NCBI GenBank assembly: GCA_947384955.1
Contig: CANDJC010000007.1
Coordinates: forward strand, 1-57,185
Source of the DNA: an uncultured Eubacterium sp.
Lineage (GTDB): Bacteria; Bacillota; Clostridia; Lachnospirales; Lachnospiraceae
Direction of reading: 5' to 3'
DNA: 57,185 bases
Shown: one piece after another, positions 1-47,381 of the stretch
Position numbering within the stretch: the stretch's first letter is position 1
Layout of the letters: the number at the start of each line of letters is the position of its first letter
Notes under the pieces: generated by a model
The model's database searches: none
Told to the model about the DNA's origin: nothing
Seen by the model: only the letters and a program-made list of their open reading frames with translations
Translations under genes and position numbers: made by a program

Positions 1-103
1 TGCCGCTTCGGCTTCGCCGCCTGGTTATCGGGCAGAATGCTAAGGGATTCTAAACATTCTTCCGATGCCGCAGAAAGACCGGACAAATCCCCTCTCCCGG
101 CTG
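1..103 (-). repeat. Hairpin element copy A (partial, cut by window edge)
   Basis: This is the left-end half, in reverse orientation, of the hairpin element family described at 358-603. It keeps the inner-arm block (GCAGAATGCTAAGGGATTCT) and the end motif CCGGCTG at 97-103, the reverse complement of the CAGCCGG that starts every forward copy. The partner arm and core lie upstream of the window, so pairing cannot be tested. It forms a divergent pair with copy B across the spacer at 104-357. Confidence 0.75.
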
Positions 104-357
104 TTTTTTGGGAAATGTTACGTGATACATTTCGGTTAGAACTATGGATAGTTTTGATTGTAAGTTTACAGCTTTCCAGATTCCAGCATATTTTTATATA
201 AATCAAGACTGTAAATTGTATTAAGTCATATCAGTATAATCTATATATAGTATCGACTCAAAAACTTGTAAACCAGCGTAATTATACTAAAAAAAACAAT
301 AACCATAAAGACAAAATTTCAGCACCGCATTGCTTTTCAAGTAAAACCTGTGAAAAA
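104..357. other. AT-rich spacer between divergent hairpin elements A and B
   Basis: No gene is supported here. The first roughly 190 bases resemble the start of the spacer between elements C and D (46626-46815): both carry AATGTTAC, GTTTACAG, GCATATTTTT and AATCTATATAT in the same order. A TATAAT stands at 235-240, but I see no good -35 box at the right distance, so no promoter is called. Confidence 0.6.
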
Positions 358-603
358 CAGCCGGGTGACGGGAAGATGCCCTGGATTCCTGTGCCATTGG
401 AGGAACGTTTAGAATCCCTTAGCATTCTGCTCAAAAACCAGGCGGCGAAGCCGAAGCGGCACCTTTAGCTGCTGGCTGCAGGCCAGGGCGAACTAGGTGC
501 CGCGACCGTCCGGGGCCACAGCGTAAATGCAGAATGCTTAGGGATTCTTAACGTTCCGGAGCCGGCACAGGAATCCAGGGCATCTTCCCGTCACCCGGCG
601 TCC
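358..603 (+). repeat. Hairpin element copy B (complete)
   Basis: This 246-bp element starts CAGCCGG and ends CCGGCGTCC. The outer arms 361-395 and 564-598 are perfect inverted repeats of 35 bases. The inner arms (about 401-430 and 529-556) pair except for two T-T mismatches. The core holds GCGGCACCT...AGGTGCCGC (about 456-503), followed by CCGTCCGGGGCCACAGC. Other copies have different outer-arm sequences that still pair, which suggests selection on structure. It lies just downstream of galM, which ends at 629 on the other strand. Function is unknown: a structured RNA or a structure-maintained mobile repeat are both possible. Confidence 0.8.
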
Positions 604-628
604 GCGAAGCCAAACCCCCCCCCTTTTT

Positions 629-1675
629 CTATTTTACCCCAAACTGATAACTCGTCTTAGTCTTATAAACTTCCCCCGCCTTCAAAAACGGAGCCTCAAA
701 GTTCGGGTCATTTACAGAATTCGGGAAATACTGCGTTTCCAGACAGAACCCATGCCGCTTGTCGTAAACAGCCCCCTGTTTTCCATCCTGTTTTGTAACA
801 AAATTGCCGGAATAAAACTGGATACCAGGCAAATCAGTGTAAGTTTTCATTACAATCCCTGTTTCCGGCGAATATGCTTCCGCTGCCAGCTCGAATGCTC
901 CCTTTTCGCTCTTATCCAGCACAAAATTATGGTCAAAGCCGCCGCCGTAATGAACCTGGGTATCGTTCGCATCCATATCCCTTCCGATTGGTTTTGCTGT
1001 CGTAAAGTCCATCGGTGTTCCGGCTACTGCGGCGATTTCTCCTGTCGGGATTGCTTTTGCATCGATAACCGGCGTAAAATGCGATGCCCGCAGCATCAGC
1101 TCCTGGCCTAAAACATCGCCGGACGCGTGGCCTGACAGATTGAAATATGCATGGTTGGTGAAATTTGCCACCGTATCTTTATCGGATACTGCCTCGTAAG
1201 CAAGCTCTACGGCATGAGCGTCTGTCAGCGTATATGTAATCTGCGCCTTCATAGTTCCCGGAAAGCCCTGCTCGCCGTCGGCGCTTGTACAGGTAAAGGT
1301 AATGGAGTTTTCTGTATGTTCTTTTACATCCCATACCTTTGCATCCATTCCATTGTTACCGGAATGCAGATTGTTTTCATTGTCATTCTGATCCAGCTGG
1401 TAAACTGTGCCGTCAATGGTAACCTTCGCATCTGCGATACGGTTTCCGTTTCTGCCAATCACTGCGCCGAAATAACAGGTATTGTTTTCATAGCCCGTTA
1501 CATTGTCATAGCCAAGCAGCACATCCTGCATGGTCCCGTTTTTATCCGGCACAATAATGGAAACTAATGCTGCGCCGTAATCGGTAACGCGCACCTTATC
1601 TCCGCTCTTATTTTCGATTTCATAGACAGACACTGCTTCTCCATGCCTGCCTGTTCCAAATGATTCCTTATTCAT
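629..1675 (-). CDS. galM: Aldose 1-epimerase (mutarotase)
   Basis: A 348-residue protein of the galactose mutarotase family, which interconverts alpha and beta anomers of free aldoses in the cytoplasm. The family's catalytic pair is visible: His175 in NHAYFNLSG and Glu313 in FCLETQYFPNS. GRNGNRI near residue 75 is also typical, and length is normal for the family. The ATG at 1675 follows a reasonable GGAA-type site. It is the last gene of the minus-strand pentose cluster, 103 bp after araD, so it probably prepares sugar anomers for the arabinose pathway. Substrate cannot be read from sequence; arabinose, galactose and glucose are all possible. The hairpin element B begins only 26 bp past its stop. 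Confidence 0.93.
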   Translation of the reverse strand: MNKESFGTGRHGEAVSVYEIENKSGDKVRVTDYGAALVSIIVPDKNGTMQDVLLGYDNVTGYENNTCYFGAVIGRNGNRIADAKVTIDGTVYQLDQNDNENNLHSGNNGMDAKVWDVKEHTENSITFTCTSADGEQGFPGTMKAQITYTLTDAHAVELAYEAVSDKDTVANFTNHAYFNLSGHASGDVLGQELMLRASHFTPVIDAKAIPTGEIAAVAGTPMDFTTAKPIGRDMDANDTQVHYGGGFDHNFVLDKSEKGAFELAAEAYSPETGIVMKTYTDLPGIQFYSGNFVTKQDGKQGAVYDKRHGFCLETQYFPNSVNDPNFEAPFLKAGEVYKTKTSYQFGVK

Positions 1676-1777
1676 AAATCTTATTCCTTTCTTTCCTGGT
1701 ACACCTTAAAATAAACAGCTGGTTACATTGCTTCGGATAAATCTTCGAGCGTGCAGAGCTTTTTCATTCTGCGCATA

Positions 1778-2473
1778 TTAATTCTGCCCATAGTACGCAT
1801 TTGCACCGTGCTTGCGGTAAAAATGCTTATCCTTGATGCTGTCAGGAGCCGGTTCTGCTTTCGGGTTAATCAGCTCTGTATTCAGCGCCATTTTGGCAAC
1901 CTCCTCTAGTACGACTGCATTATATACTGCCTGGTCAGCATCTTTGCCCCAGGTAAACGGCCCGTGGTTCTTGCACAGGATTCCCGGCGTGTACATTGGA
2001 TTGATTCCGTTTTCTTCTAATGTTTCTATAATGACAAGCCCTGTATTTTTCTCATATTCCCCGTTGATTTCATCCGGTGTCAGGCTTCTTGCACACGGAA
2101 TTGAGCCCAGAAAATAATCTGCGTGCGTTGTCCCGTATAACGGAATGCTTCTGCCGGCCTGTGCCCAGGATGTGGCTGTCGTGGAGTGCGTATGTACGAC
2201 GCCGCCGATTTCCGGGTATTTTTTATACAGCTCTGCATGCGTTGCGGTATCGGAGGACGGCTTATATTTTCCTTCGATTTTGTTCATGTCCAGGTCCATG
2301 ACGACCATATCATCCGGTGTCAGCTCGTCATATTCCACGCCGCTTGGCTTAATGACAAAATAACCGGTTTCACGGTCAATTCCGCTGACATTGCCCCATG
2401 TATAAGTAACCAGGCCGCGTTTTGGAAGTTCCATATTTGCTTCATATACCTGTTTTTTTAATTCTTCGAGCAT
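1778..2473 (-). CDS. araD: L-ribulose-5-phosphate 4-epimerase
   Basis: A 231-residue class II aldolase/adducin-fold enzyme that converts L-ribulose 5-phosphate to D-xylulose 5-phosphate, the last dedicated step of L-arabinose use. The zinc ligands are visible: His94 and His96 in [10 protein letters not shown] and His170 in [10 protein letters not shown], with Asp75 in the SSDTATH motif. The frame stays open upstream to 2593, but the start at 2473 ([10 protein letters not shown]) has an AAGGAGA site nine bases away and matches the usual N-terminus. It is separated from the transketolase genes by a hairpin terminator at 2543-2578, so its level may be tuned apart from theirs. Ribulokinase (araB) is not in the window. 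Confidence 0.95.
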
Positions 2474-2542
2474 AACTGTTATTCTCCTTTTTAATGCTAA
2501 TGCTTCAGCTTTCAGACTGCATGTCAGATGCAATTCTTCTGT

Positions 2543-2578
2543 CAAAATCAGGCAGCAGGAAACCCTGCTGCCTGATTT
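2543..2578 (-). terminator. Intercistronic rho-independent terminator
   Basis: A near-perfect hairpin with arms AATCAGGCAGCAGG and CCTGCTGCCTGATT, followed on the minus strand by TTTTG. It lies between the transketolase C-terminal gene (ends 2662) and araD (starts 2473), so it probably attenuates read-through into araD-galM. Confidence 0.75.
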
Positions 2579-2661
2579 GTGTATCTGGCTCACGCATAAC
2601 TCTTCTGCCAGGCTTCTGTATTCAGTCAGGCATCATTCTGCCGGCTGTTTCAAACAAAGTT

Positions 2662-3600
2662 TTATTGAAAAGCTTTCACTTTCTTATAAATGCCTTCTGC
2701 ATCAAGTCCGTATTTTTCAAGCAGCTGCACTGCCGGGCCGGACTCGCCGAATACGTCTTCCATGCCTATGCGCAGCATCTTTGTCGGGCATTTTTCGCTG
2801 AGCACCTCAGCAACTGCGCCGCCAAGTCCGCCGATTACGGAATGCTCTTCGACTGTCACGATTTTTCCGGTTTCCTGTGCTGCTTTTACAATTAAATCCG
2901 CATCAATCGGTTTAATCGTATGGATGTTAATCACTCTGGCGTCAATGCCGTCTGCCGCGAGCTTTTCTGCCGCTTCTAACGCGCCGGACACGCACAGGCC
3001 GGTAGCGATAATTGCAAGGTCTTTGCCGTCTCTTAATGTAACGCCTTTGCCGATTTCAAATTTGTAATCCGCACGGTCATTGATAACCGGAACTGCAAGA
3101 CGTCCGAATCTTAAGTAAACCGGGCCTTCATAAGCATATGCCGCTCTGACTGCTGCCTTTGCTTCCACATCATCCGAAGGATTGATAATGGTCATGCCTG
3201 GAATCACGCGCATCAGGGCGATATCTTCGTTGCACTGGTGGCTGGCACCGTCTTCGCCTACGGAAATACCGGCATGTGTTGCGCCGATTTTTACATTCAG
3301 ATGCGGATATCCGATGGAATTACGTACCTGTTCGAACGCACGTCCTGCCGCAAACATGGCAAATGTGCTTACAAACGGTACTTTTCCTGTGGAAGCGATG
3401 CCTGCCGCAATGCCCATCATATTCGATTCCGCAATGCCGCAGTCAATATGTCTGTCAGGAAAAGCTTTTTGAAATACGCCTGTCTTCGTCGCTGCAGCCA
3501 GGTCTGCGTCTAAAACTACAAGGTTGTCTGCTTCTTTGCCAAGTTCCGCCAAAGCATTGCCGTAGCTGTCTCTGGTTGCAATCTTCTTTACTTCTGACAT
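2662..3600 (-). CDS. Transketolase, C-terminal subunit
   Basis: This 312-residue protein carries the pyrimidine-binding and C-terminal domains of a split transketolase. With the partner encoded just upstream it should transfer two-carbon units between ketose and aldose phosphates in the pentose phosphate pathway, using thiamine diphosphate. Seen motifs include CGIAESNMMGIAAG near residue 55 (holding the conserved glutamate that activates the cofactor) and RFGRLAVPV in the linker region. Splitting into about 280 and 310 residues is normal in Clostridia. The start overlaps the end of the N-terminal subunit gene by 13 bp, which suggests translational coupling. DXP synthase is excluded by the split form and short length. 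Confidence 0.93.
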   Translation of the reverse strand: MSEVKKIATRDSYGNALAELGKEADNLVVLDADLAAATKTGVFQKAFPDRHIDCGIAESNMMGIAAGIASTGKVPFVSTFAMFAAGRAFEQVRNSIGYPHLNVKIGATHAGISVGEDGASHQCNEDIALMRVIPGMTIINPSDDVEAKAAVRAAYAYEGPVYLRFGRLAVPVINDRADYKFEIGKGVTLRDGKDLAIIATGLCVSGALEAAEKLAADGIDARVINIHTIKPIDADLIVKAAQETGKIVTVEEHSVIGGLGGAVAEVLSEKCPTKMLRIGMEDVFGESGPAVQLLEKYGLDAEGIYKKVKAFQ

Positions 3601-4427
3601 AATGCTTCACCTGCTTTCTTAAGTTCTTCCATTGCAATTGCATATTCTTCATCGTTCGGGGCTTTGCCATGCCATCCGGCCTGGTTTTCCATATACGAAA
3701 CGCCCTTGCCCTTTACGGTTTTCATTACAATTGCAGTCGGCTGGCCTTTTGTCGCCTTTGCTTCTTCAAAAGCAGCACGAATCTGCGCCATGTCATTCCC
3801 GTCTGCTACATTAATCACATGGAAATTAAAAGCTTCAAATTTCTTATCGATTGGATAAGGCGAGCAGACTTTATCTACCGCTCCGTCAATCTGCAGGCCG
3901 TTATTATCTACGATAACACACAGATTGTCCAGCTTCCGGTGTCCGGCAAACATCGATGCCTCCCAGACCTGTCCTTCCTGAATCTCGCCGTCTCCGAGAA
4001 GCGTATAAACCCGGTAGCTTTCATTGCTTAATTTTGCCGAAAGCGCCATGCCCACAGCTACGGAAATCCCCTGTCCCAGCGAACCGGAAGCAGCGTCAAT
4101 CCCCGGTGTATGCTGTACACACGGATGCCCCTGCAGATGAGAGCCCAGATGACGCAGTCCTTTTAAATCTTCCACCGGAAAATAACCTCTGTTTGCCAGC
4201 ACTGAATATAAGCCAGGCGCCGTATGTCCCTTCGACAGTACAAAGCGGTCACGGTCTGCCTTCTTTGGCTCCTTCGGGTCTATATTCATTTCTTCAAAAT
4301 AAAGATATGTAAAAACCTCAGCAGATGATAAAGAGCCGCCCGGATGTCCGGCCTTTGCCGAATGAACGCCCGTTACGATTCCTTTTCGTACTTCCACTGC
4401 TATTTTCTGTAATTCTAAATCAGTCAT
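3588..4427 (-). CDS. Transketolase, N-terminal subunit
   Basis: This 279-residue protein is the thiamine diphosphate-binding half of a split transketolase. The cofactor motif runs from GDGE at residues 145-148 to NN at 175-176. The conserved phosphate-site histidines are in VHSAKAGHPGG (22-31) and SKGHTAPGLY (66-75), and LGSHLQGHP carries another. It sits 44 bp downstream of the transaldolase gene and overlaps the C-subunit gene, so the three probably share one mRNA and feed xylulose 5-phosphate made from arabinose into glycolysis. Confidence 0.95.
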   Translation of the reverse strand: MTDLELQKIAVEVRKGIVTGVHSAKAGHPGGSLSSAEVFTYLYFEEMNIDPKEPKKADRDRFVLSKGHTAPGLYSVLANRGYFPVEDLKGLRHLGSHLQGHPCVQHTPGIDAASGSLGQGISVAVGMALSAKLSNESYRVYTLLGDGEIQEGQVWEASMFAGHRKLDNLCVIVDNNGLQIDGAVDKVCSPYPIDKKFEAFNFHVINVADGNDMAQIRAAFEEAKATKGQPTAIVMKTVKGKGVSYMENQAGWHGKAPNDEEYAIAMEELKKAGEALCQK

Positions 4428-4470
4428 ATTACTATCCTTTCCCAGATGATGCAGTCAATTGTGCATATTT

Positions 4471-5112
4471 TTACTGTGCGCTGTCCTGTACAAATTTTGC
4501 AATGCCGGCATCTGTTAACGGATGTTTGGTCATAGATTCAATGACACCGTAAGGAACGGTAGCGATATCTGCTCCTGCCAGGGCACAGTCAATAATATGA
4601 ATCGGATTGCGGATAGATGCTGCGATAATCTCTGTCTCGATATCATGAATCGCGAAAATCTCTGCGATTGTTTTAATCAGGTCTACGCCCGGCACAGAAA
4701 TATCATCCAGACGTCCCAGGAACGGAGATACGTATGTAGCGCCTGCCCTTGCTGCCAGCAGTGCCTGGTTTGCATTGAAAATCAGTGTCACATTTGTCTT
4801 GATTCCTTCTTTGGAAAGCTGTTTGACTGCCTTTAAGCCTTCGACTGTCATAGGAATCTTTACTACCATATTCGGATGGATTTTAGCGATTTCACGGCCT
4901 TCTGCAATCATGCCTTCTGCGTCCTGTGTCGTAGCCTTTACTTCTCCGCTGATTGGTCCGTCTACGATATCGGTAATCTCTTTGATAACTTCTGCAAAAT
5001 CCCGGCCTGACTTTGCAATCAGGGACGGATTTGTCGTTACGCCGCAGATAACCCCCATGTCATTTGCCTTTTTGATTTCTTCAACAATCGCTGTGTCCAC
5101 AAAAAATTTCAT
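4471..5112 (-). CDS. Fructose-6-phosphate aldolase / small transaldolase (FSA/TalC family)
   Basis: A 213-residue TIM-barrel enzyme of the short transaldolase family. The Schiff-base lysine is Lys85 in VVKIPMT, and GVTTNPSLI at residues 24-32 is the family N-terminal signature. Family members are either true transaldolases or fructose-6-phosphate aldolases and sequence alone does not separate them safely. The context, directly before a split transketolase, favours transaldolase activity in the non-oxidative pentose phosphate pathway. The start has a GGAGAAGAAGAATT leader. It lies 145 bp downstream of araA. Confidence 0.9.
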
Positions 5113-5256
5113 AATTCTTCTTCTCCTTCTCTTTTACCGGGTCATACCCATTTATTAGCTATTATAGCAAACCATTCTTGCTGTGACAACCTTCATTTTT
5201 TGCTGATTTTATCTTCTTATCTGCAAAATCGCCATTTGCAGTGATTCCCGTCATTT

Positions 5257-6753
5257 CTATTTGCCGTATACCACATTTCCCAGCATCAAATCTCTCTTTA
5301 AGCCAGGAATTGTCGTTCCGTCTGTAATATATACCGGCTCAATGCCCATCATAGATGCCCAGTCGCCAATCTGCTCCGAAGTCAGGTCATAAGTAAATGC
5401 TGTATGATGCGCGCCTCCCGCCAGAATCCATGCTTCCAGCCCGGTATAGAAATCCGGCTTCGGTACCCAGAAATTAGAGCCTACCGGAAGATTCGGCATT
5501 GGCTTTTCTGTCTTTTTGCAGGTAACATCATTAATCAGCAGACGGAATCTGTCTCCCAGGTCAATTAAAGATGCCGCCACACCAGGGCCTTCCTTAGATG
5601 TAAATACAAGCCTTGCCGGGTCTTCCCTGTCGCCCATCGATAACGGCTGGCATTTAATGCTGACCGGGCCGTCTGCAATCGAAGGGCATACCTCCAGCAT
5701 GTGGGACTGCAGAATGCCTTCTTTGCCAGGTACCAGATTATACGTATAATCCTCCATCATAGAAGTACCCTTTGCATCCTTCATGCCGGCCGTCATAATT
5801 TTCATAATGCGGACCATCGCAGCCACCTTCCAGTCGCCTTCTGCACCGAATCCGTATCCTTTCTGCATCAGCCTTTGGATTGCAAGGCCAGGCAGCTGTT
5901 TTAAAGAACCAAGGTCGCCGAAATGCGTCACAATTGCCTGATAATTCTTTTCTTCTAAGAACCGTTCAAACCCGATTTCAATCTGCGCCTGAACAGCCAC
6001 ATGTTTTTTGAACTCTTCCGGGTCCCTGCCTTCTAACAGAATTTCATATGTATCATAATACTCATCCACAAGCGCATTCGTATCTGACTCGGATACTGCT
6101 GCCACCGATTCTGCGATTTCATTCACTGGATAAGCATCCACTTCCCAGCCGAACTTCAGCTGTGCTTCTACCTTATCGCCTTCGGTAACTGCAACATTGC
6201 GCATATTGTCTGCCACACGCATCACACGCACATGGCTGCTTTCGATAACACCAAGCGCCACGCGCATCCAGGAAGCAAGCCTTTTTATCACATTTTCATC
6301 TTTCCAGAAGCCCGCAATGACCTTGCGCTCAATCCCCATGCGGGTTACCATATGGCCGTACTCTCTGTCGCCGTGCGCTGCCTGATTCTCATTCATAAAA
6401 TCCATATCAATCGTATCATACGGAATTTCCTGATTATACTGCGTATGCAGATGGCACAGCGGTTTCCTTAATTCTTTCAATCCCAGAATCCAGGACTTTG
6501 CAGGAGAGAATGTGTGCATCCATGTGATTACGCCTGCGCATTCATCATCCGTATTCGCCTCGTTAAAGGTCTTTCTGATTAATTCATTGGTGATTAATGT
6601 CGGTTTCCATACTACTTCGAATGGCAGAATACCAGACTTATTTAAATACTCTGCAATTTCTTTGGAATGAGCCGCTACGTGGCTTAAGCACTCATCTCCG
6701 TATAAGTCCTGCGAACCTGTACAAAACCAAAACTTATAATTTCTTGTCTGCAT
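5257..6753 (-). CDS. araA: L-arabinose isomerase
   Basis: A 498-residue protein of normal length for AraA, which converts L-arabinose to L-ribulose in the cytoplasm with a divalent metal. The N-terminal FWFCTGSQDLYG and the segments GVITWMHTFSPAKSW and FGAEGDWKVAAMVR are family hallmarks; the glutamate of GAEGDWK and the histidine of AGGAHHTAF are expected at the metal and substrate site. The start has GGAGGATG seven to nine bases upstream. It is the first gene of the cluster and has a promoter with an overlapping palindrome (6873-6904), which points to sugar-responsive repression. Confidence 0.97.
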   Translation of the reverse strand: MQTRNYKFWFCTGSQDLYGDECLSHVAAHSKEIAEYLNKSGILPFEVVWKPTLITNELIRKTFNEANTDDECAGVITWMHTFSPAKSWILGLKELRKPLCHLHTQYNQEIPYDTIDMDFMNENQAAHGDREYGHMVTRMGIERKVIAGFWKDENVIKRLASWMRVALGVIESSHVRVMRVADNMRNVAVTEGDKVEAQLKFGWEVDAYPVNEIAESVAAVSESDTNALVDEYYDTYEILLEGRDPEEFKKHVAVQAQIEIGFERFLEEKNYQAIVTHFGDLGSLKQLPGLAIQRLMQKGYGFGAEGDWKVAAMVRIMKIMTAGMKDAKGTSMMEDYTYNLVPGKEGILQSHMLEVCPSIADGPVSIKCQPLSMGDREDPARLVFTSKEGPGVAASLIDLGDRFRLLINDVTCKKTEKPMPNLPVGSNFWVPKPDFYTGLEAWILAGGAHHTAFTYDLTSEQIGDWASMMGIEPVYITDGTTIPGLKRDLMLGNVVYGK

Positions 6754-6872
6754 TGCAACATCCTCCTATTATTTATAAAATTAAAGTGCTGAACCGGGAT
6801 ATCCAGAATCTGGATGCTGTCCCTTATTTTGCAGCAGTTTAAAAAACAGACTGCCGTTTTGAGTTACTATAT

Positions 6873-6904
6873 ATAATTTACCACTAAATGGTATTGATTG
6901 ACAA
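6873..6904 (-). promoter_or_regulatory. Promoter of araA with overlapping palindromic operator
   Basis: On the minus strand a -35 box TTGTCA (6904-6899) and a -10 box TAAATT (6880-6875) are 18 bp apart. The inverted repeat TACCACTAAATGGTA (6879-6893) fills the second half of the spacer and touches the -10 box, a position that fits a repressor blocking RNA polymerase. No regulator gene for it lies nearby, so the binding protein is unknown. Confidence 0.55.
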
Positions 6905-7048
6905 GTTATATTTTTTAAAATATACAAAAATATTTTATATTTATCTAAAATTATGCTCTGTTAAACGAATTTTTGAAAACAGAATATAGAAATTTATGCA
7001 CATTTATGACAAAACGGATGCTTTTGGGAGATTGGGGACTTTTGAATG

Positions 7049-7336
7049 GGACGCCGGAGGGAGGAGCGGGTTCCTTTTGGATGTTCCGCTTACGAAAAGC
7101 AGGAAGTTCTAAACTTTCTGCACCAAGGTTTCGGCAGCGGACGGACCGGCGCCTGATGCCCTGGCGTTACTGGCGGTTATACGTATTGGCACTGGCAGGC
7201 GCCTTTTGGGGACTTCAAAGTTTAATCGGACGGTAAGCAGTGTGTCCCCAAATCCTGTGTATTGAGCAGAAAGTTAAGAACTTCCAGCTTTTCTCCAGAG
7301 TCACATCCAAAAGGAACCCGCTCCTCCCTCCGGCTG
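7049..7336 (-). repeat. Hairpin element copy E (complete, reverse orientation)
   Basis: A 288-bp member of the hairpin family in reverse orientation. The outer arms 7053-7084 and 7303-7334 pair perfectly over 32 bases but differ in sequence from all other copies. The inner arms (about 7100-7117 and 7265-7287) pair with the conserved T-T mismatch. The core carries the GGCGCCT/AGGCGCC hairpin and the CCGTCCG block (antisense as shown). An 87-codon open frame crosses it but follows the hairpin rather than any gene logic. Confidence 0.8.
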
Positions 7337-7498
7337 TTCTTGGCTGAATTTACGCTACAGAACCAGCTGTACATTATCGGCTATCCTTTCAGCAGTCAAA
7401 AGCTGACACATTCGTTTATATCAGCTGATTCTAATTATTATTTATAGAAAGTAAAATTTCTGCTTAACCTAAACTCTCAGTTTCGGCTGAACGATAAA
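7337..7498. other. Spacer between divergent hairpin elements E and F
   Basis: A 162-bp AT-rich stretch with no open frame worth calling. It contains the short inverted pair GGCTGAA...TTCGGCTGAACG and otherwise shows little likeness to the spacers at 104-357 and 46626-47135. No convincing promoter was found in either direction. Confidence 0.5.
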
Positions 7499-7784
7499 CA
7501 GCTGGATGGAGAAATTTTTTCCTTCTGATGTGACTCTGGAAAAAAGCAGGAAGTTCTTAGTTTTCTGCTCAATACACAGGATTTGGGGACACACTGCTTA
7601 CCGTCCAATTAAACTTCGAAGTCCCCAAAAGGCGCCTGCCAGTGCCAATGCGTATAACCGCCAGTAACGCCAGGGCATCAGGCGCCGGTCCGTCCGCAGC
7701 CACAGCCCCGGCGCAGAAAACTTAGAACTTCCTGCTTTTTGGAAGCGGAACATCAGAAGGAAAAAATTTCTCCATCCAGCGTCC
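7499..7784 (+). repeat. Hairpin element copy F (complete)
   Basis: A 286-bp forward copy starting CAGCTGG and ending CCAGCGTCC. The outer arms 7501-7531 and 7750-7780 are perfect complements over 31 bases. They differ from copy E at many positions with the pairing kept. The core is almost identical to E (about three differences in 100 bases) and ends with CCGTCCGCAGCCACAGC, the same block as in B and D. It stops about 50 bp from the permease stop at 7836. Confidence 0.8.
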
Positions 7785-7835
7785 CTCCCTCCCCCCCACT
7801 TCCACCCATCCCCCCTCAGACTCACAATTTCCTCA

Positions 7836-8666: not shown

Positions 8667-8670
8667 CACG

Positions 8671-9573: not shown

Positions 9574-9660
9574 CTCTTTCCTTCCTTTCTGAAATTAAAT
9601 TTCCAGCAATTAATTTCCGCAGATTTTCTGCTTTTTCATGGTTTGCCCCTTATATGTTCC

Positions 9661-10974: not shown

Positions 10975-11026
10975 AATTTTCCCGCCTTTCTCAAAGCTCT
11001 CTGCTTTTGCTTTATTTGTTGTATTT

Positions 11027-38943: not shown

Positions 38944-39668
38944 AATCGTACCTCTTTTCCGTTTTCCAAAAGCCCCAGCACCTGGCGCACCCGCATCAGA
39001 TGATTTAAATTCAGCAGATTCCAGTCCATAAAGCTGTCCAGCTTTTTCGTCGTCTGAATCATTTCATCCTCTTCCACATAATCAATCAGCCCCTGCTTTT
39101 CCAGAAACTTCAAAATATGATGCAGAAAGCCCTCTTTCGTCGTCTTTGCCTTCGAGCCGCGCTCATCCGAGCGCAGCGCCTCATATGCCTCGTACATATT
39201 CGCAAATGCCAGCCCGTGTTCCTCTTCCGCCTCCCCGGCATTCGCAGCCCCTTCTTTTAAATAGGCGCCGATGCTGTTCTGCAGCTCTCCCACGCGCAGA
39301 AACGTCCTGGATTTACTGCTGCTGCCCTGACCGTCATAAAATTCCACCAGAAGCGTCAGAATCACAAACTGCGACAGAAAATAATCCCGGTCCGTCCCGT
39401 TCGACTTGCACAGAGCCGCTTTCAGCTGCGCTTTGGAAAACCCCAGAAAATTATTTTCTTCCCGCGGAATCAGATAAATGACATCGCCGTAACGCTCAAT
39501 GCTGCTTGCCGCGATTTCTCCCTGGGATTTTACCAGATTCTGTATCTGTTCATTCTCCGCGTAGGCTCTGTACAGAATGCTTTCCGTCTCTTCCCGGATT
39601 TCATGATGCTCCAAAAGAAAATAAAAAATCTCCTGGCTGGTGCGGATTTCCTCCAGTTCGTATGCCAT
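38940..39668 (-). CDS. jetB: Wadjet JetB, MukE-like subunit
   Basis: A 242-residue protein placed between jetA and jetC, as in known Wadjet operons, where JetB is the MukE/kite-like partner of the SMC protein. Sequence features fit a winged-helix protein: a mixed helical N-terminal half, then GFLHHILKFLEKQGLIDYVEEDEMIQTTKKL in the C-terminal half. I believe it matches the DUF6063 type rather than the DUF4194 type, but that needs a profile search. It overlaps jetC by 4 bp and is 22 bp after jetA, so all three are translationally linked. Confidence 0.85.
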   Translation of the reverse strand: MAYELEEIRTSQEIFYFLLEHHEIREETESILYRAYAENEQIQNLVKSQGEIAASSIERYGDVIYLIPREENNFLGFSKAQLKAALCKSNGTDRDYFLSQFVILTLLVEFYDGQGSSSKSRTFLRVGELQNSIGAYLKEGAANAGEAEEEHGLAFANMYEAYEALRSDERGSKAKTTKEGFLHHILKFLEKQGLIDYVEEDEMIQTTKKLDSFMDWNLLNLNHLMRVRQVLGLLENGKEVRL

Positions 39669-39690
39669 GTCTGCTCCTTTCCATCATTTT

Positions 39691-41313: not shown

Positions 41314-41343
41314 AGGGGTGCCTTTCTAATATTCTGATTCCAT

Positions 41344-41997
41344 TTATGATGTACACGAATAGCAGCCTTCCAGATACCGGCTTTCTTCGTTTCTGCAGAC
41401 GCGGACTGGAATATGCAAAAACGGCAGCCTGCAGTTATCGCCAAATCGCAGCTCAAATTCCCCGCCGTTCCATTCCTTCGCAGGCATTCCGGGCGCCTCG
41501 CCAGTACGCACTCTTTTTAAGACCGGGTTTTCCGGCATACATGTCATGCAGCCTTCGGATATCGTTTCCTTTTCATAGGTTGTATACATCCTGATATGCT
41601 CTATTTTTATATGCAGTATTGCAGAAGCTGCCAGCACAAACAGATAACTTGCCCGGAATTTGCCTTTGATTTCCAGCCATTTTTCCTTTGTCGTAACACT
41701 CGATTTCATTTCAATTAAATGGACTGTCCAGCTGCCGTTCTCCTTTTGTTCAAAAACGATGTGGTCTGTACGCTTCTTTAAAGATAATGCTTTTTCATTC
41801 CGAAAAAATAGAAAATCCGTTTTTTTCTTATCCAGATTTCTGACTGCCATGGAATGCTTTCCCGGTACATAAAAATGCAGGAGCGTTTCTCCACCAGGGT
41901 CTGCTTCTTCCAGTTCGTATGTGCCATCCGGGCTTTCTTCAAAAAAATCCTCGACAAAGAACTTTTCCATAATATATTTGCGGTATTCTTCATTCAT
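41344..41997 (-). CDS. PD-(D/E)XK-like protein embedded in the Wadjet operon
   Basis: A 217-residue protein without a recognised name. The segment TDHIVFEQKENGSWTVHLIE followed by MKSS gives an acidic residue, a beta hairpin and E-x-K, the usual pattern of PD-(D/E)XK nucleases, so nuclease activity is plausible but inferred. The start chosen at 41997 (MNEEYRKYIMEKFF) has AAAGGAA ten bases upstream; an ATG at 42024 in the same frame has none. The DNA around the start is part of a degenerate tandem repeat (41968-42150). It follows the broken ATPase gene and precedes jetA by 30 bp. Not part of a standard Wadjet set. Confidence 0.6.
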   Translation of the reverse strand: MNEEYRKYIMEKFFVEDFFEESPDGTYELEEADPGGETLLHFYVPGKHSMAVRNLDKKKTDFLFFRNEKALSLKKRTDHIVFEQKENGSWTVHLIEMKSSVTTKEKWLEIKGKFRASYLFVLAASAILHIKIEHIRMYTTYEKETISEGCMTCMPENPVLKRVRTGEAPGMPAKEWNGGEFELRFGDNCRLPFLHIPVRVCRNEESRYLEGCYSCTS

Positions 41998-42150
41998 CCT
42001 GCGTAGTTTCCTTTGATTTGTCATAGAAGCATTTTCTATATTTTATTTACATATTTATTCGTTCTGCGCACTTCCTACTGATTTGACACAGAACATTTTC
42101 CATATTTATTTGCATATTCTTCATTCATCCTGCTGATTCGGCATAAAAGT
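41968..42150. repeat. Degenerate tandem repeat of about 70 bp covering a gene start
   Basis: The 5' end of the PD-(D/E)XK-like gene (GGATGAATGAAGAATA, GCAAATA, ATGGAAAA in this order on the minus strand) is repeated upstream near 42070-42135, with a more decayed middle copy. The upstream copy encodes a short open frame MNEEYANKYGK that ends in TAG after 17 codons. Confidence 0.65.
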
Positions 42151-42250
42151 ATTTTTCTTTTACAAAATATATCGTATCAGTTTCCTGCAAAGAAATATGC
42201 ACAAAAATACTTCCATCTGTCTTATACAGCACTACAGCCGGCAGCATTTT

Positions 42251-43559
42251 CTAACTCTGAATCTGAATCACATCCTCCATCAATTCATCCAGAGCATCGT
42301 TAAATGTCGGCACGGCAAAACCATTTTCTCCGCACGGCAGCTCCTTTACCTCCGTCATTCCATCCTTGCAGACAGACATCTGGTATACCCGGACCTTTTC
42401 CGGCGCTATCAGGTCTTCGGTTTCATATCCGTAATCTTTTGGATTTTTCTGCATTCTGCTCAGCCGAATCATGTTGTTCATATGCTGCAGGATAATATCG
42501 CTGTGTGTTGTCGCTGTCACATCAATCCCCGCATTTACCATCCTGGCAAGAACCTGTCCCATACGTTTCTGCAGTGCAGGATGCAGGCACATTTCCGGTT
42601 CTTCGTAAAATAATCCGCCTATTCTCTTTGTGTGAGATAATAAAAGCAGCAGCGGAGCTAATTCTGTAACAACCGCAGACGCAGCCCGGAACGGATATTT
42701 TCGGTCCCCTCCATCTGGGATGTATGACAGCTCACGGCCGGGAAGAGAGCTGATTTCAACATTTCCCTGCGTCATTTCCCGCTGTATAAAGGATACAATA
42801 TCCCGATACGCTTCCTGCACCGTCCTGCTCCTGTGACAAATCATTCATAACATCTAAAAAATCCAGAATTGGACGGGAAAATGTCTGTGACGCTGGCCGT
42901 TCTTCGGTTTCTATCAGAGTAAATGCCTTTTCTCGCGCATACTTATTAATAATATCCTTTGACATCATAAATCCCGTACGTGCTGCCGGCATATAAACTG
43001 CGGAAGGTAATAATAACAAGCATTCTATAGCCGTTTCTAATAATAAATTTATCCTATATTCATATGTCAAATTACAGGAAAATTCTATGAACCCTATACC
43101 AAAAAAACTAGCAGTCATTTTTCCCTGGGAATCGTTTATCCATATATTTCCTGATATATTCTCAGGCACTTTCATCTGGATTTGTTCCACGCTGACACAA
43201 TTGCTATGAAAAAGCATATTCATCAGCTGCTCTTTTTTTATCTCCAGCGTCTGATTGATTTTCACCTCTAACTGTGGCAGAATGTGCGCCAGATTTAGTA
43301 CCGCTGACCCTTTATCCTCAGCCTGCTGTATTGCTTCTCGAAAATATAATCCCAGTTCATCAGACTTCGTATCATCTTCTTTCCTGAAAAACTCTCTCCT
43401 AAATATGTCATCCCCAAACTTGCGAACTGCCCACGCCAGCGAAAGCAGATAACTCTTCCCGCTGTTATTATCCCCGACAAACAGCGTCATAGGCGCAAGC
43501 TCAATCTCCGCCTTTTTAATTTTCCCAAACCCTTCCACTTCTAATTTCCAATAAGCCAT
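42251..43559 (-). pseudogene. Frameshifted OLD-type AAA ATPase embedded in the Wadjet operon
   Basis: Two overlapping frames make up one ATPase of about 435 residues. The first (43559 to 42756) has Walker A GDNNSGKS at residues 29-36. The second (from about 42844 to 42251) has Walker B GLFYEEPEMCLHP and the switch TATTHSDIILQH. Homology-like sequence moves from frame one (VMNDLSQEQD) to the other (RTVQEAYRDIVSF) around 42810-42830, so a single indel breaks the gene. There is no slippery run to suggest programmed shifting. It starts 9 bp after the jetD stop with GAGGGATG as site. With the next gene it looks like an ATPase-nuclease pair inserted between jetD and jetA. A sequencing error is possible. 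Confidence 0.8.
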
Positions 43560-43567
43560 GGCATCCC

Positions 43568-44575
43568 TCACTTACCGCCAAAATCCCCGATATTTAAAAT
43601 CTCCTGCGGAATATACCGCCCGCTTTCCAATATTTCCTTCATTTTCAAAACCGTCTGCTCCGAAAAATATGCAAAAAACCGCCCGGATATCCTGCGGTTC
43701 TGCTTTTCTTTGGTCATTGGCAGGCCGCAGACTTTCTGCGCCTTTGCCAGCATCCTCTCATATGCAGCTGTAAACGGCCGTATTTCATACTGCCAGCATT
43801 CAAACGGCTCTGCCAGCCGCTCATAGATTCCGATTCCCTCATAATCCAGGTCGCCAAAATAATAAATCTGATTCTCCTGCGCCTTCATATACGGTTCCAC
43901 GCAAAAAGAGAAATCCTGAAAAGAACGCAGAATTCCCTTCCCCGCGCCATAAATCAGTGTTCCGAACGCAGTCTCAAAAATCATTTCATCATGCTCCAGC
44001 AAATGCCGCCGCATACTGTAAAATGTATCTTTATTTTCCAGAATCAGTAAATTCTGCGGCGTCCTGCGATGTCTGCTGTAATAGGCAAGCGGCTCGGATG
44101 TCTCATAATAAGAAAGCTGCGAAGCATCGATACCGCAGCGCTTTAAGATTTTCCTTCCAGATTCTAATTGCAGAAATTTCTCCCGGTTCCAAATCTCAAA
44201 GCTGCGCTCATTTTTCGAAACCGGCATCACCGTCTCCTGCTGCTGTATCCGCAGAAGAAAACGGTTCAGCATCAGCACCCATTCACGGTCTTTGTGATAC
44301 TGCTCTAAATGACGCAGATAATAATCCACACTGACTTTCGTACTCATGCGGTATTTCAGCTCTTCTTCGTACAGACTGTAATCCAGGCCGCCATTCGCAT
44401 CCTGTTTCGTCATCCAGTATTCATAATACAATGCCGGCTTCTTCCCGTTTGTTTTCGAAGCCTTAACCGGTTTTAAGCTTCCGTCTTCAATTTGTCCGTA
44501 AATATAGCTGCAAAGCTGCGCATAGGACTCCGGCCGCTGCTTTCGTTCAATTTCTTCCAGTTTTATCCGTTTCAT
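43568..44575 (-). CDS. jetD: Wadjet JetD, Toprim nuclease subunit
   Basis: A 335-residue protein with the JetD (DUF2220) Toprim nuclease domain in its C-terminal half: the conserved glutamate in LLILENKDTF (Glu180) and the DxD pair in YFGDLDYEGIGIYERL (Asp242, Asp244). The N-terminal half is mainly helical and DNA-binding in relatives. In Wadjet, JetD cleaves the plasmid held by JetABC. Here it is the first gene of the operon, not the last. The start is uncertain: ATG at 44575 (MKRIKLEEIE) matches the expected N-terminus, and ATG at 44611 is possible; neither has a strong ribosome site. A pair of 79-bp direct repeats lies just upstream. Confidence 0.88.
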   Translation of the reverse strand: MKRIKLEEIERKQRPESYAQLCSYIYGQIEDGSLKPVKASKTNGKKPALYYEYWMTKQDANGGLDYSLYEEELKYRMSTKVSVDYYLRHLEQYHKDREWVLMLNRFLLRIQQQETVMPVSKNERSFEIWNREKFLQLESGRKILKRCGIDASQLSYYETSEPLAYYSRHRRTPQNLLILENKDTFYSMRRHLLEHDEMIFETAFGTLIYGAGKGILRSFQDFSFCVEPYMKAQENQIYYFGDLDYEGIGIYERLAEPFECWQYEIRPFTAAYERMLAKAQKVCGLPMTKEKQNRRISGRFFAYFSEQTVLKMKEILESGRYIPQEILNIGDFGGK

Positions 44576-44615
44576 TTTTCTCAGCTCTTCTGACCTTCCA
44601 GCTGTCTGCATTTTA

Positions 44616-44880
44616 TTTCTTCTCAGCCGCACTTTTTCCCGGCTGTTTCTGCTTATTCTGCCCTTTATGTCTGTTCTATTATTTTGCTCTTTGTTTTCTT
44701 CTCAGCCGCACTTTTTCCCGGCTGTTTCTGTTTATTCTGCTCTTTATACTTATTCTGCTCTTTGCATTTGTTCTATGATTCTGTTCTTTGCGTTGTTTCC
44801 GTCTATTCTGCCTTTTGCATCTGATTCTGCTATTTGTGCCGTTTCTGCTTTCTATTTCGCCTGTCTGTTTTGTTCTTTGC
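44616..44880. repeat. Direct repeats and low-complexity tract upstream of jetD
   Basis: A 36-bp block (TTTCTTCTCAGCCGCAC to CGGCTGTTTCTG) occurs at about 44616-44651 and again at 44695-44730, 79 bp apart. Each contains a hairpin CAGCCG...CGGCTG. The rest, to about 44880, is a degenerate run of TTCTGCTCTTT-like units. It spans the jetD leader on the minus strand. No promoter could be singled out within it and no gene is supported. Confidence 0.7.
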
Positions 44881-44920
44881 GCCGCATACGTTCATTTTTT
44901 AACGTATGCAGCGCTTTTTT
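44879..44920 (+). terminator. Rho-independent terminator in plus orientation
   Basis: Arms GCGCCGCATACGTT and AACGTATGCAGCGC (one mismatch) are followed by six T residues on the plus strand. The nearby genes both run on the minus strand, so it would stop antisense transcripts coming out of the jet operon. It gives no U-run for the minus-strand flavodiiron mRNA that ends at 44967. Confidence 0.7.
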
Positions 44921-44966
44921 ATCCGGTAACACTTCGTTCCTTCAAAACGCATACCGCACAAAGAAT

Positions 44967-46142
44967 TTATTCAGCCGCATTTGCAATGGCATCTGCCAGC
45001 GCTTCCAAATCTGCCATATTTTCTTCTTTCAGCGTAGATTTAATCGTAACCACCGGTTCTACAATCGACACATTTTTCATTGTTTCCAGAATTGCCTTCA
45101 TAGTCCTTGCAGCTGTCGGCCCCCAGGAACCGTTTTCCAGAATACCAACCGTACGTTTCTGATAAGCCTTGCTCTGCAGATGATGCAGAAAATCCTGCAT
45201 GCACGGGAATACCCCGCCGTCATAGCTTGCAGCCGCCAGAATCATCCGGTCATAGCGGAATGCATCCTCAATCACCTCTGCCATATCCTCTCTTGCAAGG
45301 TCGCTGACAACAACCTTTTCCACACCCTTTTCACGCAGCATTTCTCCCAGCTTTTCAGCGGCTTTTGCCGTATTTCCGTGAATCGAAGCATATGCTACAA
45401 GCACGCCTGTATTCTCCGGCTTATAGCTGCTCCATGTATCATACAGGCCAGTGTAATAGTCCAGATTTTCCTTCAGAATCGGACCGTGCAGCGGACAAAT
45501 CATTGCAATATCAAGTCCCGCAGCCTTTTTCAAAAGCGCCTGCACAGAAGCACCGTATCTTCCTACAATATTAAAATAATACCGTCTGGCTTCGCATGCC
45601 CAGCCTTCGTCATCCTCTGCATCCATAGCCCCGAACTTTCCAAAGCCGTCTGCAGAAAACAGAATCTTCTCGCTGCTTTCATAAGTCACCATAACCTCCG
45701 GCCAGTGAACCATCGGAGCCATATAAAAGTTCAGTGTATGAGAACCGAGCGAAAGTGAATCTCCTTCCTTTACAACATGCGTCCGGCCTTCCAGACTGAT
45801 ATCGAAAAACTGAGGCAGCATATTAAAAGTCTTTGCATTTCCTACAATCACAGCATCCGGATACAGCTCCATCAGCCTGCCAATGCTGCCTGCATGGTCC
45901 GGCTCTAAATGCGAAATAACAAGATAATCCACCTTTCTGCCGCCTAACGCTGCCTGTAAATTCTGCTCCCATTCCTTCATGCCTCTGGCATCTACCGTAT
46001 CCATCAGCGCTGTTTTTTCATCTAAAATCAAATATGAATTATAAGTCACACCGTCCGGCACTACGTACTGGCTCTCAAATAAGTCAATCTCTCTGTCGTC
46101 TACACCAATGTATTTAATGGAATCTGAAATTGTTACCTGCAT
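44967..46142 (-). CDS. Flavodiiron protein (FprA family, A-type flavoprotein)
   Basis: A 391-residue enzyme that reduces oxygen to water (or nitric oxide to nitrous oxide) in anaerobes. The N-terminal metallo-beta-lactamase domain has the di-iron ligands in HLEPDH (His78, Glu80, Asp82), His146 in MVHWP, Asp165 in SADGFG and His219 in CPLHGP. The C-terminal flavodoxin domain starts about residue 247 (VLVAYASIHGNTAKAAEK) and binds FMN. No extra rubredoxin domain is attached, so it takes electrons from a separate protein. It has its own promoter at 46276-46304 and a GGGAG site. It is a housekeeping oxygen-protection gene. Confidence 0.96.
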   Translation of the reverse strand: MQVTISDSIKYIGVDDREIDLFESQYVVPDGVTYNSYLILDEKTALMDTVDARGMKEWEQNLQAALGGRKVDYLVISHLEPDHAGSIGRLMELYPDAVIVGNAKTFNMLPQFFDISLEGRTHVVKEGDSLSLGSHTLNFYMAPMVHWPEVMVTYESSEKILFSADGFGKFGAMDAEDDEGWACEARRYYFNIVGRYGASVQALLKKAAGLDIAMICPLHGPILKENLDYYTGLYDTWSSYKPENTGVLVAYASIHGNTAKAAEKLGEMLREKGVEKVVVSDLAREDMAEVIEDAFRYDRMILAAASYDGGVFPCMQDFLHHLQSKAYQKRTVGILENGSWGPTAARTMKAILETMKNVSIVEPVVTIKSTLKEENMADLEALADAIANAAE

Positions 46143-46275
46143 AATTTTTCTCCCTTCTTCTTTATCCGCATTTTAAAATAACTATGTATACATTTTCTCT
46201 GTACACTGTATTTTCAGGCGGTTCTTTCTGAGTTAAAATATCTGGCATATTTGCCTGTATATCTGCATGGCTTAT

Positions 46276-46304
46276 AGTATAACCTATACATGCGTGTTTT
46301 TCAA
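46276..46304 (-). promoter_or_regulatory. Promoter of the flavodiiron gene
   Basis: A -35 box TTGAAA (46304-46299) and a -10 box TATACT (46281-46276) on the minus strand with a 17-bp spacer. The leader to the start codon is about 125 bases. Confidence 0.7.
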
Positions 46305-46381
46305 ACATTTTCTGGGAGAAATTCTGCATTTCTGTTACGGGTTATAACAACCTGGCTGGGGGAGGGGGAGTTTGGATACGC

Positions 46382-46625
46382 GGACGCCGGGAGAGGGGCG
46401 CTGCCAGGTATTCCCGGAGCCGCTCCAGAATGTTAAGAATCCCTAGGCATTCTGCATTTACGCTGTGGCCCCGGACGGACGCGGCACCTGGTTCGCCCTG
46501 GCCTGCAGCCAGCAGCTAAAGGTGCCGCTGCGGCTTCGCCGCCTGGTTATTGTGCAGAATGCCAAGGGATTCTAAACATTCTTCCAATGCTCCGGGAATA
46601 CCTGGCAGCACCCCTCTCCCGGCTG
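46382..46625 (-). repeat. Hairpin element copy C (complete, reverse orientation)
   Basis: A 244-bp reverse copy. Outer arms 46386-46420 and 46589-46623 pair over 35 bases; the single non-Watson-Crick pair is G-U when the forward-orientation strand is read as RNA and C-A on the other strand. The inner arms carry a compensating change (GGCATT/AATGCC) where copy B has AGCATT/AATGCT. Core and flank motifs match copies B and D. Confidence 0.8.
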
Positions 46626-47135
46626 GTTTTCGAAAAATGTTACATGAAACAATTTGCTGTACGTTTACAGGCTATTTCAGTTTCTGCATATTTTTGTAAA
46701 AATCCAAACTATATAGAGTATTTAGTGTTAGCTGCACAATCTATATATGGCAGGGAATCACAAATTTACAGACTGGTAAACATAGTATAAACTTCTGACG
46801 GAAGTTTACTGTCCGCCTGCCATATAAAAATTACCACTGCGATTACTAATTTTCACACCAAATTTTCAAATACCAGACCAGTATTACATGTTTTCTCGCC
46901 CAACTTTCAAATACTAGACCAATATTACTAATTTTCCCGCCCAACTCTCTAATACCAGACAGATGATGAAAAGATGCGCTGACTTTCTGCAGCATTGGAG
47001 GAATTTTCAAAATCCAGACGCATATTGCATATTTTCTCGCCGAACTTTCAAAACCTGACAGATATTCCATATTTCCACGCCAAACTTTCAAAACCTGACA
47101 GATATTCCACATTTCCACGCTGAACTTTCAATAAC
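46626..47135. other. Spacer between hairpin elements C and D, with a 40-bp tandem array
   Basis: The first 190 bases resemble the A/B spacer at 104-357. From about 46846 to 47135 lie five to seven degenerate units of about 40 bp built around TTTTCTCGCCNAACTTTCAAANNCCAGAC. Inside the array, 46961-47005 is a decayed fragment like the left arm of element D (AAGATG, GCTG, CATTGGAGGAAT). The last unit runs directly into element D. Units abut with no unique spacers, so this is not a CRISPR. No gene is supported in the 1.36 kb between 46143 and 47503. Confidence 0.7.
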
Positions 47136-47381
47136 CAGCCGGGTGACGGGAAGATGTGCTGGCTTCCCGCGACATTGGAGGAATGTTTAGAATCCCTTAG
47201 CTTTCTGCTCAATAACCAGGCGGCGAAGCCGCAGCGGCACCTTTAGCTGCTGGCTGCAGGCCAGGGCGAACCAGGTGCCGCGTCCGTCCGGAGCCACAGC
47301 GTAAATGCAGAATGCTTAGGGATTCTTAACATTCCGGAGCCGGAGCCGGAAGCCAGCACATCTTCCCGTCACCCGGCGTCC
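47136..47381 (+). repeat. Hairpin element copy D (complete)
   Basis: A 246-bp forward copy from CAGCCGG to CCGGCGTCC. The outer arms 47138-47167 and 47348-47377 pair perfectly over 30 bases. They share the first 17 bases with copy B (GCCGGGTGACGGGAAGA) and then differ from it with pairing kept. The core is nearly identical to B apart from a few changes. Confidence 0.8.

What the first reader, a model, noticed from the sequence alone, without database searches (positions are those of the whole stretch)
1..47381. Three loci share one layout: two divergent hairpin elements around an AT-rich spacer
At 1-603, 7049-7784 and 46382-47381 a reverse element, a spacer of 160-510 bp and a forward element occur in the same order, with the CAGCYGG ends facing the spacer. 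All complete copies share CAGCYGG at one end, CC(G/A)GCGTCC at the other, a GGYGCCT/AGGYGCC core hairpin and CCGTCCG..GCCACAGC. Three of three loci in divergent pairs suggests the pair is the functional or mobile unit. I know of no named element with this form.
Basis: partly seen in the sequence, partly recalled or inferred. Interest (0 to 1): 0.88.

Follow-up and report, generated by a model that had tools for sequence, protein, structure and literature searches.

The report
Paired mobile DNA hairpins, TwoAYGGAY type
A gut bacterium's genome is strewn with pairs of large back-to-back DNA hairpins that appear to spread as units, and their core is related to a structure that the Rfam database lists as a regulatory RNA.

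Summary
All three loci carry two divergent 244-288-nt hairpins, CAGC ends inward and GCGTCC ends outward. The core motif occurs 265 times in the 5.06-Mb genome. Of 102 copies examined, 80 have a divergent mate, 7 a mate fragment, 10 no mate and 5 end at a contig edge; all 40 adjacent pairs are divergent. The pair behaves as one polar unit: in the main subfamily 20 of 22 pairs combine arm types A and B, and a 125-bp centre often lies between the hairpins. One unit sits between a penicillin-binding-protein gene and mraY, where 12 of 12 congeners lack an intact unit and one keeps a remnant.

The hairpin is not wholly nameless. Permissive Rfam scans place one window hairpin, and hairpins of three congeners, in TwoAYGGAY (RF01731), typed as cis-regulatory RNA and once proposed to bind CsrA. 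The t1 and t3 copies read here lack the AYGGAY loops. Their stems are 98% Watson-Crick and change on both sides at once.

I read this as a gene-less mobile DNA unit that works through a fold-back DNA hairpin. The enzyme is unknown; IS200-type transposase counts do not track with the units.

The parts
1..103 (-). Locus 1, reverse t1 hairpin of arm type A, cut by the contig start
   Evidence: profile 13-149 of t1, 133 bits; type A
163..273 (+). Locus 1, spacer core (centre of the unit, ~125-bp AT-rich sequence with ~25-bp inverted ends)
   Evidence: 120 bits
358..603 (+). Locus 1, forward t1 hairpin of arm type B (CAGC...GCGTCC); T.T mismatches at 410/549 and 420/539
604..625 (+). C-rich, G-poor tail outside GCGTCC, up to the 3' end of the neighbouring gene (629-1675, -)
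7049..7336 (-). Locus 2, reverse t3 hairpin; 7088-7299 matches Rfam TwoAYGGAY (71.4 bits, gathering 43)
7337..7498 (.). Locus 2 spacer, 162 bp, 35% GC, no spacer core detected
7499..7784 (+). Locus 2, forward t3 hairpin (no TwoAYGGAY match reported)
46382..46625 (-). Locus 3, reverse t1 hairpin of arm type A
46663..46777 (+). Locus 3, spacer core
46842..47140 (+). Locus 3, degenerate 40-41-bp repeats and a partial copy (46931-47023) of the inner edge plus left arm
47136..47381 (+). Locus 3, forward t1 hairpin of arm type B

Best explanation
Each locus is one gene-less (non-autonomous) mobile DNA unit: end A hairpin, AT-rich centre, end B hairpin, with the hairpins pointing outward. Each hairpin has a long stem capped by a T-shaped three-way junction, and it belongs to, or derives from, the family Rfam calls TwoAYGGAY RNA. 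The unit is inherited and spread as a pair between genes, then decays, often by loss of one mate. Shown here: paired layout, polarity of t1 units, copy number, a site without the unit in congeners, a match of one t3 hairpin to TwoAYGGAY, and stems kept complementary by changes on both arms. Inferred: the active form is a folded-back single DNA strand (in replication or a cruciform) that an unidentified enzyme recognises by the fixed features (CAGC and GCGTCC feet, two T.T mismatches 10 bp apart, the internal loop, the junction), and one arm is rewritten by copying the other. The different outer arms of A and B would let each hairpin fold on itself rather than pair with its inverted mate.
For: 265 core motifs in one genome, 133+/132-. 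40 of 40 close neighbours divergent and 80 of 102 copies with a mate. Pairs of one subfamily by best profile: 31 t1/t1, 9 t3/t3, 0 mixed. 20 of 22 t1 pairs are A/B (read by me from the printout); t1 outer arms are less alike within pairs than between (0.727 against 0.785; 2000 of 2000 shuffles at least as high), apical parts more alike (t1 0.920 against 0.888, t3 0.888 against 0.819; 0 of 2000 each). 7 of 7 further typed pairs A/B. The spacer core lies between two hairpins in 26 of 30 loci, and its orientation follows A/B polarity in 11 of 13 typed single-core loci. A t3 unit sits between a PBP gene and mraY; in 12 of 12 congeners these genes are adjacent (83-483 bp between the compared ends) without an intact unit, G008 with a remnant. 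TwoAYGGAY: window 71.4 bits, congener hairpins 69-119 bits. Stems: 4374 of 4443 pairs Watson-Crick, 28 G.T, 12 A.C; outer helix 29 of 36 pairs changed on both sides, 1 on one side only. No ORF over 120 aa spans any of the 45 units looked at.
Against: No enzyme identified. No target-site duplication seen by eye at 17 pairs, and junctions cannot be read to the base because congeners are only 76-82% identical at mraY. 10 of 102 copies show no mate; 9 of 30 congener loci show a single copy and one (L079) a tandem. In other genera 17 of 20 TwoAYGGAY loci show no second copy in the stretch held. The unlike-arm effect is significant in t1 only; in t3 it is not (0.761 against 0.781; 1508 of 2000). G.T exceeds A.C in this genome (28 to 12, p 0.017), which leaves room for some RNA-level constraint. 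Window loci 2 and 3 gave no clean empty site: their two flanking genes were not found together in the relatives' fetched stretches.
Confidence: 0.6

Rival explanations
1. The hairpins act as RNA: small RNAs or cis-regulatory leaders, for instance sponges for CsrA (the published guess for TwoAYGGAY), driven outward from promoters in the spacer.
For: Rfam type is Cis-reg. CsrA proposal in PMC4333381 (passage read). Excess of G.T over A.C in the own genome (28 to 12). A TTTACA...CATATT promoter-like pair at the start of the spacer core in loci 1 and 3.
Against: Both AYGGAY loops are absent from the t1 and t3 hairpins read in this genome, so the GGA loops are not needed for spread. 98.4% strict Watson-Crick pairing and few one-sided changes. 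Hundreds of copies in varied gene contexts: 11 co-directional, 7 divergent, 4 convergent of 22 pairs. Promoter-like sites are 3 against 0.9 and 2 against 1.7 in shuffles.
Confidence: 0.17
2. They are REP/BIME/REPIN-type palindromes moved by a tyrosine (Y1, RAYT) transposase.
For: Inverted pairs, conserved spacers in one dimer type and a preference for unlike partners are described for REP dimers (PMC3733652, passages read). Intergenic, high copy.
Against: Several times larger than REPs, no GTAG foot. Y1 transposase counts run the wrong way: G001 54 matches with 2 units, G009 none with many hairpin matches, own genome 2, one of them with six stop codons.
Confidence: 0.1
3. They are structural or transcriptional insulators (bidirectional terminators, replication or nucleoid sites) kept by selection, not mobile.
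For: 15 outer ends of the 45 units looked at lie within 30 bp of, or overlap, a gene's 3' end (my count).
Against: Copy number swings from none detected (G006, G010) to hundreds between congeners; no bias to convergent genes; no intact unit at the PBP-mraY site in 12 of 12 congeners.
Confidence: 0.08

Closest known systems
TwoAYGGAY RNA motif (Rfam RF01731; Weinberg et al. 2010, PMC2864571, table row read; PMC4333381, passage read)
   Same: Same T-shaped architecture: long stem, two capped hairpins, a conserved CGTC-containing strand. Covariance-model match above gathering for the window copy at 7088-7299 and for 11 hairpins of G007, G011 and G012. Found in 35 of 200 genomes of the family.
   Different: The t1 and t3 copies read here lack both AYGGAY loops, and those tested other than 7088-7299 do not reach the model. 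They carry fixed CAGC and GCGTCC feet, occur in hundreds as divergent pairs, often around a conserved centre, and behave as mobile DNA. In other genera 17 of 20 loci show one copy, and the outer arms differ from locus to locus.
REP dimers / BIME / REPINs (RAYT-associated palindromes)
   Same: Dispersed intergenic palindromes in inverted pairs, often unlike partners, spacer partly conserved.
   Different: 244-288 nt hairpins against 20-40 bp, no GTAG foot, no link to a RAYT found; the words Firmicutes and Clostrid- do not occur in that survey's main text.
MITEs (transposase-less insertion elements)
   Same: No gene, inverted ends, many copies between genes, a site without the unit in congeners.
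   Different: Ends are self-folding hairpins rather than simple terminal repeats; no target duplication and no parent transposon found.
Parvovirus (AAV-type) terminal hairpins, recalled from general knowledge, not tested
   Same: T-shaped hairpins in inverted orientation at both ends of a DNA unit, with a short conserved sequence just inside.
   Different: No replication gene, chromosomal, bacterial; only a resemblance.

Membership tests
TwoAYGGAY (RF01731) | Covariance-model score at or above gathering (43 bits) | tested here: met
   Met for window 7088-7299(-), 71.4 bits, 3 matches in the own genome, and 11 hairpins in 8 of 20 loci given to (all in G007/G011/G012). Not met for t1 in the window, for the forward mate 7499-7784, for own t3 copies in L035, L038, L043, or for the t1 loci of the own genome and congeners.
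TwoAYGGAY (RF01731) | Two terminal AYGGAY loops | tested here: not met
   Absent in the t1 and t3 hairpins read from the own genome; both present in a G012 hairpin (L083). The t1 set is therefore filed as a derived relative, not a member.
TwoAYGGAY (RF01731) | Three-way junction with two capped hairpins | tested here: met
   Folds; pair counts (helices 3-5, 11 of 17 pairs never vary).
REP / REPIN | 20-40 bp palindrome with GTAG foot | tested here: not met
   Hairpins 244-288 nt, feet CAGC and GCGTCC.
REP / REPIN | Associated Y1 (RAYT) transposase | tested here: not met
   Copy numbers do not track; no core motif (up to 3 mismatches) in the stretches round the own genome's two Y1 matches.
REP / REPIN | Inverted pairs | tested here: met
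   40 of 40 close neighbours.
MITE | No coding capacity | tested here: met
   Of 40 spacers 35 are under 850 bp; genes found in some of the five over 1 kb.
MITE | Target-site duplication | tested here: inconclusive
   None obvious at 17 pairs; relatives too diverged for base-exact junctions.
MITE | Parent transposon with the same ends | tested here: inconclusive
   No transposase in the five long spacers; no plasmid or phage match to the hairpin; to the spacer core only four short weak plasmid matches and no phage match.
CsrA-binding sRNA | GGA in hairpin loops | tested here: not met
   t1 loops are GAA and a TGCAG-like loop; t3 loops are long and lack AYGGAY. Binding itself not testable here.

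The most novel reading that the evidence does not exclude
TwoAYGGAY is not a regulatory RNA but the end structure of a new kind of mobile DNA: a unit with two different T-shaped hairpin ends that moves as folded single-stranded DNA through an enzyme not yet known, and that keeps its arms complementary by copying one arm from the other.
Probability: 0.25. Interest if true: 0.9.

Novelty: new variant of a known kind. Interest (0 to 1): 0.7.

Why it matters
It gives an orphan 'RNA' family a different and testable meaning: a dispersed DNA element that can reach hundreds of copies, in polar pairs, in a gut Lachnospiraceae genus. It would point to an unknown mobilising enzyme. It also warns that compensatory changes in a long hairpin need not mean RNA. 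The units also coincide with many contig ends in this assembly.

Tried and rejected
Rfam default scan: no match; it misled until permissive scans of single loci. Permissive scans of long hairpins also return look-alikes below their gathering scores (plant miRNAs, RRE), rejected as chance. Viral origin: 92 stretches of viral contigs hold the 15 fixed bases exactly, but none (L249-L340) matches the hairpin profiles, so chance. Phages and plasmids: no match to the hairpin; the spacer core gives four short weak plasmid matches and no phage match. Own IS200-type transposase as mover: no core motif beside it, counts do not track. Genes in long spacers as the mover: ParE-type toxin, HTH and Arc/RHH-like proteins, GNAT and proteins without a Pfam match, no transposase. 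Host-derived outer arms in other genera: the one test locus gave no syntenic relative, left open. Promoters in the spacer: weak. Empty sites at window loci 2 and 3: flanking genes not found together in the relatives' fetched stretches. Spacer core in congeners: no match with one query in the 30 loci.
Full report
WHAT IS THERE. The window is a whole contig (C7) of a 5.06-Mb genome in 271 contigs. At the three stated places two hairpins of 244-288 nt stand back to back, CAGC ends inward and GCGTCC ends outward; at locus 1 the reverse one is cut by the contig start. The two hairpins folded alone fold far better than their shuffles. From outside in (t1): GC-rich foot, outer stem of about 35 bp, a 6x6 internal loop (ATTGGA / GGAGCC), inner stem of about 28 bp with two T.T mismatches 10 bp apart (each in about 64 of 67 t1 copies, summing two neighbouring columns), then a three-way junction with hairpin A and hairpin B and a CCGTCCG strand. 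Just inside CAGC a short sequence (CACGTAAAACCTGNGAAAAC-like) is conserved; outside GCGTCC follows a C-rich tail. Subfamily t1 (loci 1, 3) and t3 (locus 2) differ mainly in hairpins A and B. At C27 one hairpin joins t1-like inner arms to a t3 apex (my reading), so the modules recombine.

THE PAIR IS THE UNIT. The core motif occurs 133+/132- with one mismatch allowed (reversed control 0/1). I fetched stretches round the listed places and called hairpins with two profiles. Of 102 copies scoring 100 bits or more, 80 have a divergent mate, 7 a fragment of one, 5 reach a contig end within 1.5 kb on the mate side, and 10 have no mate; all 40 neighbouring copies within 3.5 kb are divergent. Left out: 165 of the 265 places, which the tool did not print, and 19 printed places at contig ends. 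By best profile all 40 pairs are of one subfamily (31 t1/t1, 9 t3/t3). In t1 the outer arms come as type A (GGGAGAGGGG...) and type B (GGGTGACGGG...). 20 of 22 pairs hold one of each (my reading of the sequences printed; C55 is A/A, C59 B/B), and 7 of 7 further pairs typed by script do too (L140 could not be typed). t1 outer arms are less alike within pairs than between; in t3 the difference is not significant. Apical parts are more alike within pairs in both: mates share their cores, probably by conversion within the locus.

THE CENTRE. Spacers share a sequence of about 125 bp with inverted ends ACACCAGTTTACA...TGTAAACTGGTGT. One search found 56 matches in the genome. Of the 30 loci returned, it lies between two hairpins (whole or partial) of either subfamily in 26; two loci have one hairpin, one has the core 560 bp outside a pair and one has none (two of the 30 loci are one place). 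Where a single core and a typed t1 end are present, the core's orientation follows A-to-B in 11 of 13; the exceptions (C44, C17) are partial copies. L140, untyped and left out, would by eye be a third exception. So the t1 unit is polar: A, centre, B. Window locus 2 has no detectable centre.

DISTRIBUTION AND MOVEMENT. The exact motif is found in 4 of 13 genomes of the genus, own included, and, apart from the own genome, once each in 7 of 397 genomes of the family, while the reversed control rings in 8, so those look like chance. Diverged versions of the hairpin occur in congeners G001-G005, G007-G009, G011 and G012. At 30 congener loci that I chose from these matches, 15 show a divergent mate, 5 a fragment of one, 9 a single copy and one (L079, G011) two copies in tandem (most stretches held about 1 kb on each side). 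G006 and G010 gave no hairpin match to either query. A t3 unit of about 1.4 kb lies between a penicillin-binding-protein gene and mraY (a Glycos_transf_4 protein; a murD-like gene follows). In all 12 congeners the two genes are adjacent, with 83-483 bp between the compared ends; 11 show no profile match there, and G008 holds what I read as a remnant, outer arm and tail repeats, with profile matches of only 9-15 bits. The best reading is insertion in this lineage, or loss elsewhere, with a decayed unit in G008. At window loci 2 and 3 the flanking genes were not found together in the relatives' fetched stretches, so no clean empty site there. No ORF over 120 aa spans any of 45 units; of 22 pairs with both neighbours, 11 are co-directional, 7 divergent, 4 convergent.

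THE NAME. The whole-window Rfam scan with default filters found nothing. Permissive scans of single loci place window 7088-7299(-) in TwoAYGGAY (RF01731) at 71.4 bits against a gathering score of 43. Of 20 loci scanned together, 8 hold 11 matches at 69-119 bits, all in G007, G011 and G012 and including both mates of pairs in L081, L086 and L362; the other 12, own t3 and t1 loci and t1 loci of congeners, hold none. The forward mate in window locus 2, other own t3 copies and the t1 copies in the window do not reach it. The link for t1 goes through G007: its hairpins match the t1 or t3 profile and RF01731, and t1 copies cross-match the t3 profile. A G012 hairpin (L083) carries both AYGGAY loops; the own-genome hairpins read have neither. 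In 200 genomes of the family RF01731 was found in 35, with at most 13 candidates scored per genome, so counts are low estimates. Among the printed matches (the list is cut) lying within 700 bp of each other, five pairs are divergent and one is in tandem (my count). In 20 loci from other genera 3 show a second copy, each time divergent, in the stretch held. In 18 of 20 the sequences outside the core are complementary beyond all 30 shuffles, and by eye they differ from locus to locus.

RNA OR DNA. On 30 t1 hairpins from five species the outer helix has 29 of 36 pairs changed on both sides and one changed on one side only; 97.4% of cells pair, with 0 of 500 shuffles as high; the structure was drawn from one of the sequences. 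In 87 hairpins of the own genome (four more could not be delimited) 4374 of 4443 pairs in the chosen stem columns are Watson-Crick, 28 G.T and 12 A.C. RNA under selection would be expected to show many more G.U pairs and one-sided intermediates (general knowledge, no control run). Their scarcity, together with fixed T.T mismatches, suits a DNA hairpin whose arms are rewritten together. The excess of G.T over A.C (p 0.017) is a point for RNA; in 20 loci of other genera it is 42 to 34 (p 0.42), and pairing there is looser (1224 of 1472 Watson-Crick).

MECHANISM. Most likely the unit moves, or its ends are repaired, as folded-back DNA recognised at the fixed feet, loop, mismatches and junction. 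Unlike arms in A and B would keep each hairpin from pairing with its inverted mate. Di Nocera et al. noted a preference for unlike partners in most REP families without obvious explanation and suggested protection from SbcCD (PMC3733652, passages read); the same may hold here. The mover is unknown: Y1 transposase counts do not follow unit counts and no gene found in the long spacers is a transposase. Tandem copies of inner edge plus left arm (six at C50, four at C72) and of the tail look like slippage during synthesis at the hairpin, which fits fold-back copying but does not prove it.

LITERATURE. TwoAYGGAY: one table row in PMC2864571 (RNA 'probably', cis-regulatory 'probably not', human gut, gamma-Proteobacteria, Clostridiales), CsrA proposal in PMC4333381 (passage), passing mentions in PMC11701678, PMC7657543 and PMC11661157 (passages). 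None of the passages read speaks of mobile or paired DNA. Searches found no report of the paired unit; the library lacks most subscription papers.

Noticed in passing
L039 665-818, L044 1247-1400, C77:20174-20327 (L129): A second palindromic insert of about 160 nt, with TACACCGTAAAATAAATAACTGG ends where read (L039, L044), interrupts t1 hairpins at the same profile point of the hairpin-B stem; it looks able to fold into a nested hairpin of its own.
   Followed up: partly
L050 234-771; L162 257-884: Spacers with six and four tandem copies of the inner edge plus left half of the hairpin (about 90 bp and about 165 bp apart).
   Followed up: partly
L134, right of 130825 in C1: The tail outside GCGTCC is repeated about seven times in tandem (GCGTCCGCGAAGCCAGACAAAATCCCG-like); a similar array is left in G008 between the PBP gene and mraY.
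   Followed up: no
L031 667-3131, L033 741-2262, L034 734-1837: Long spacers between mates hold small genes: ParE-type toxin and weak RHH/Arc-like proteins, Cro-type HTH, GNAT acetyltransferase.
   Followed up: partly
G000 contig ends: Many contigs begin at a forward copy or end at a reverse copy, so the assembly seems to break at these pairs.
   Followed up: no
G001 (Eubacterium plexicaudatum ASF492): 54 matches to Y1 (IS200-type) transposase in one genome, against 0-5 in the 12 other genomes of the genus that were searched.
   Followed up: no
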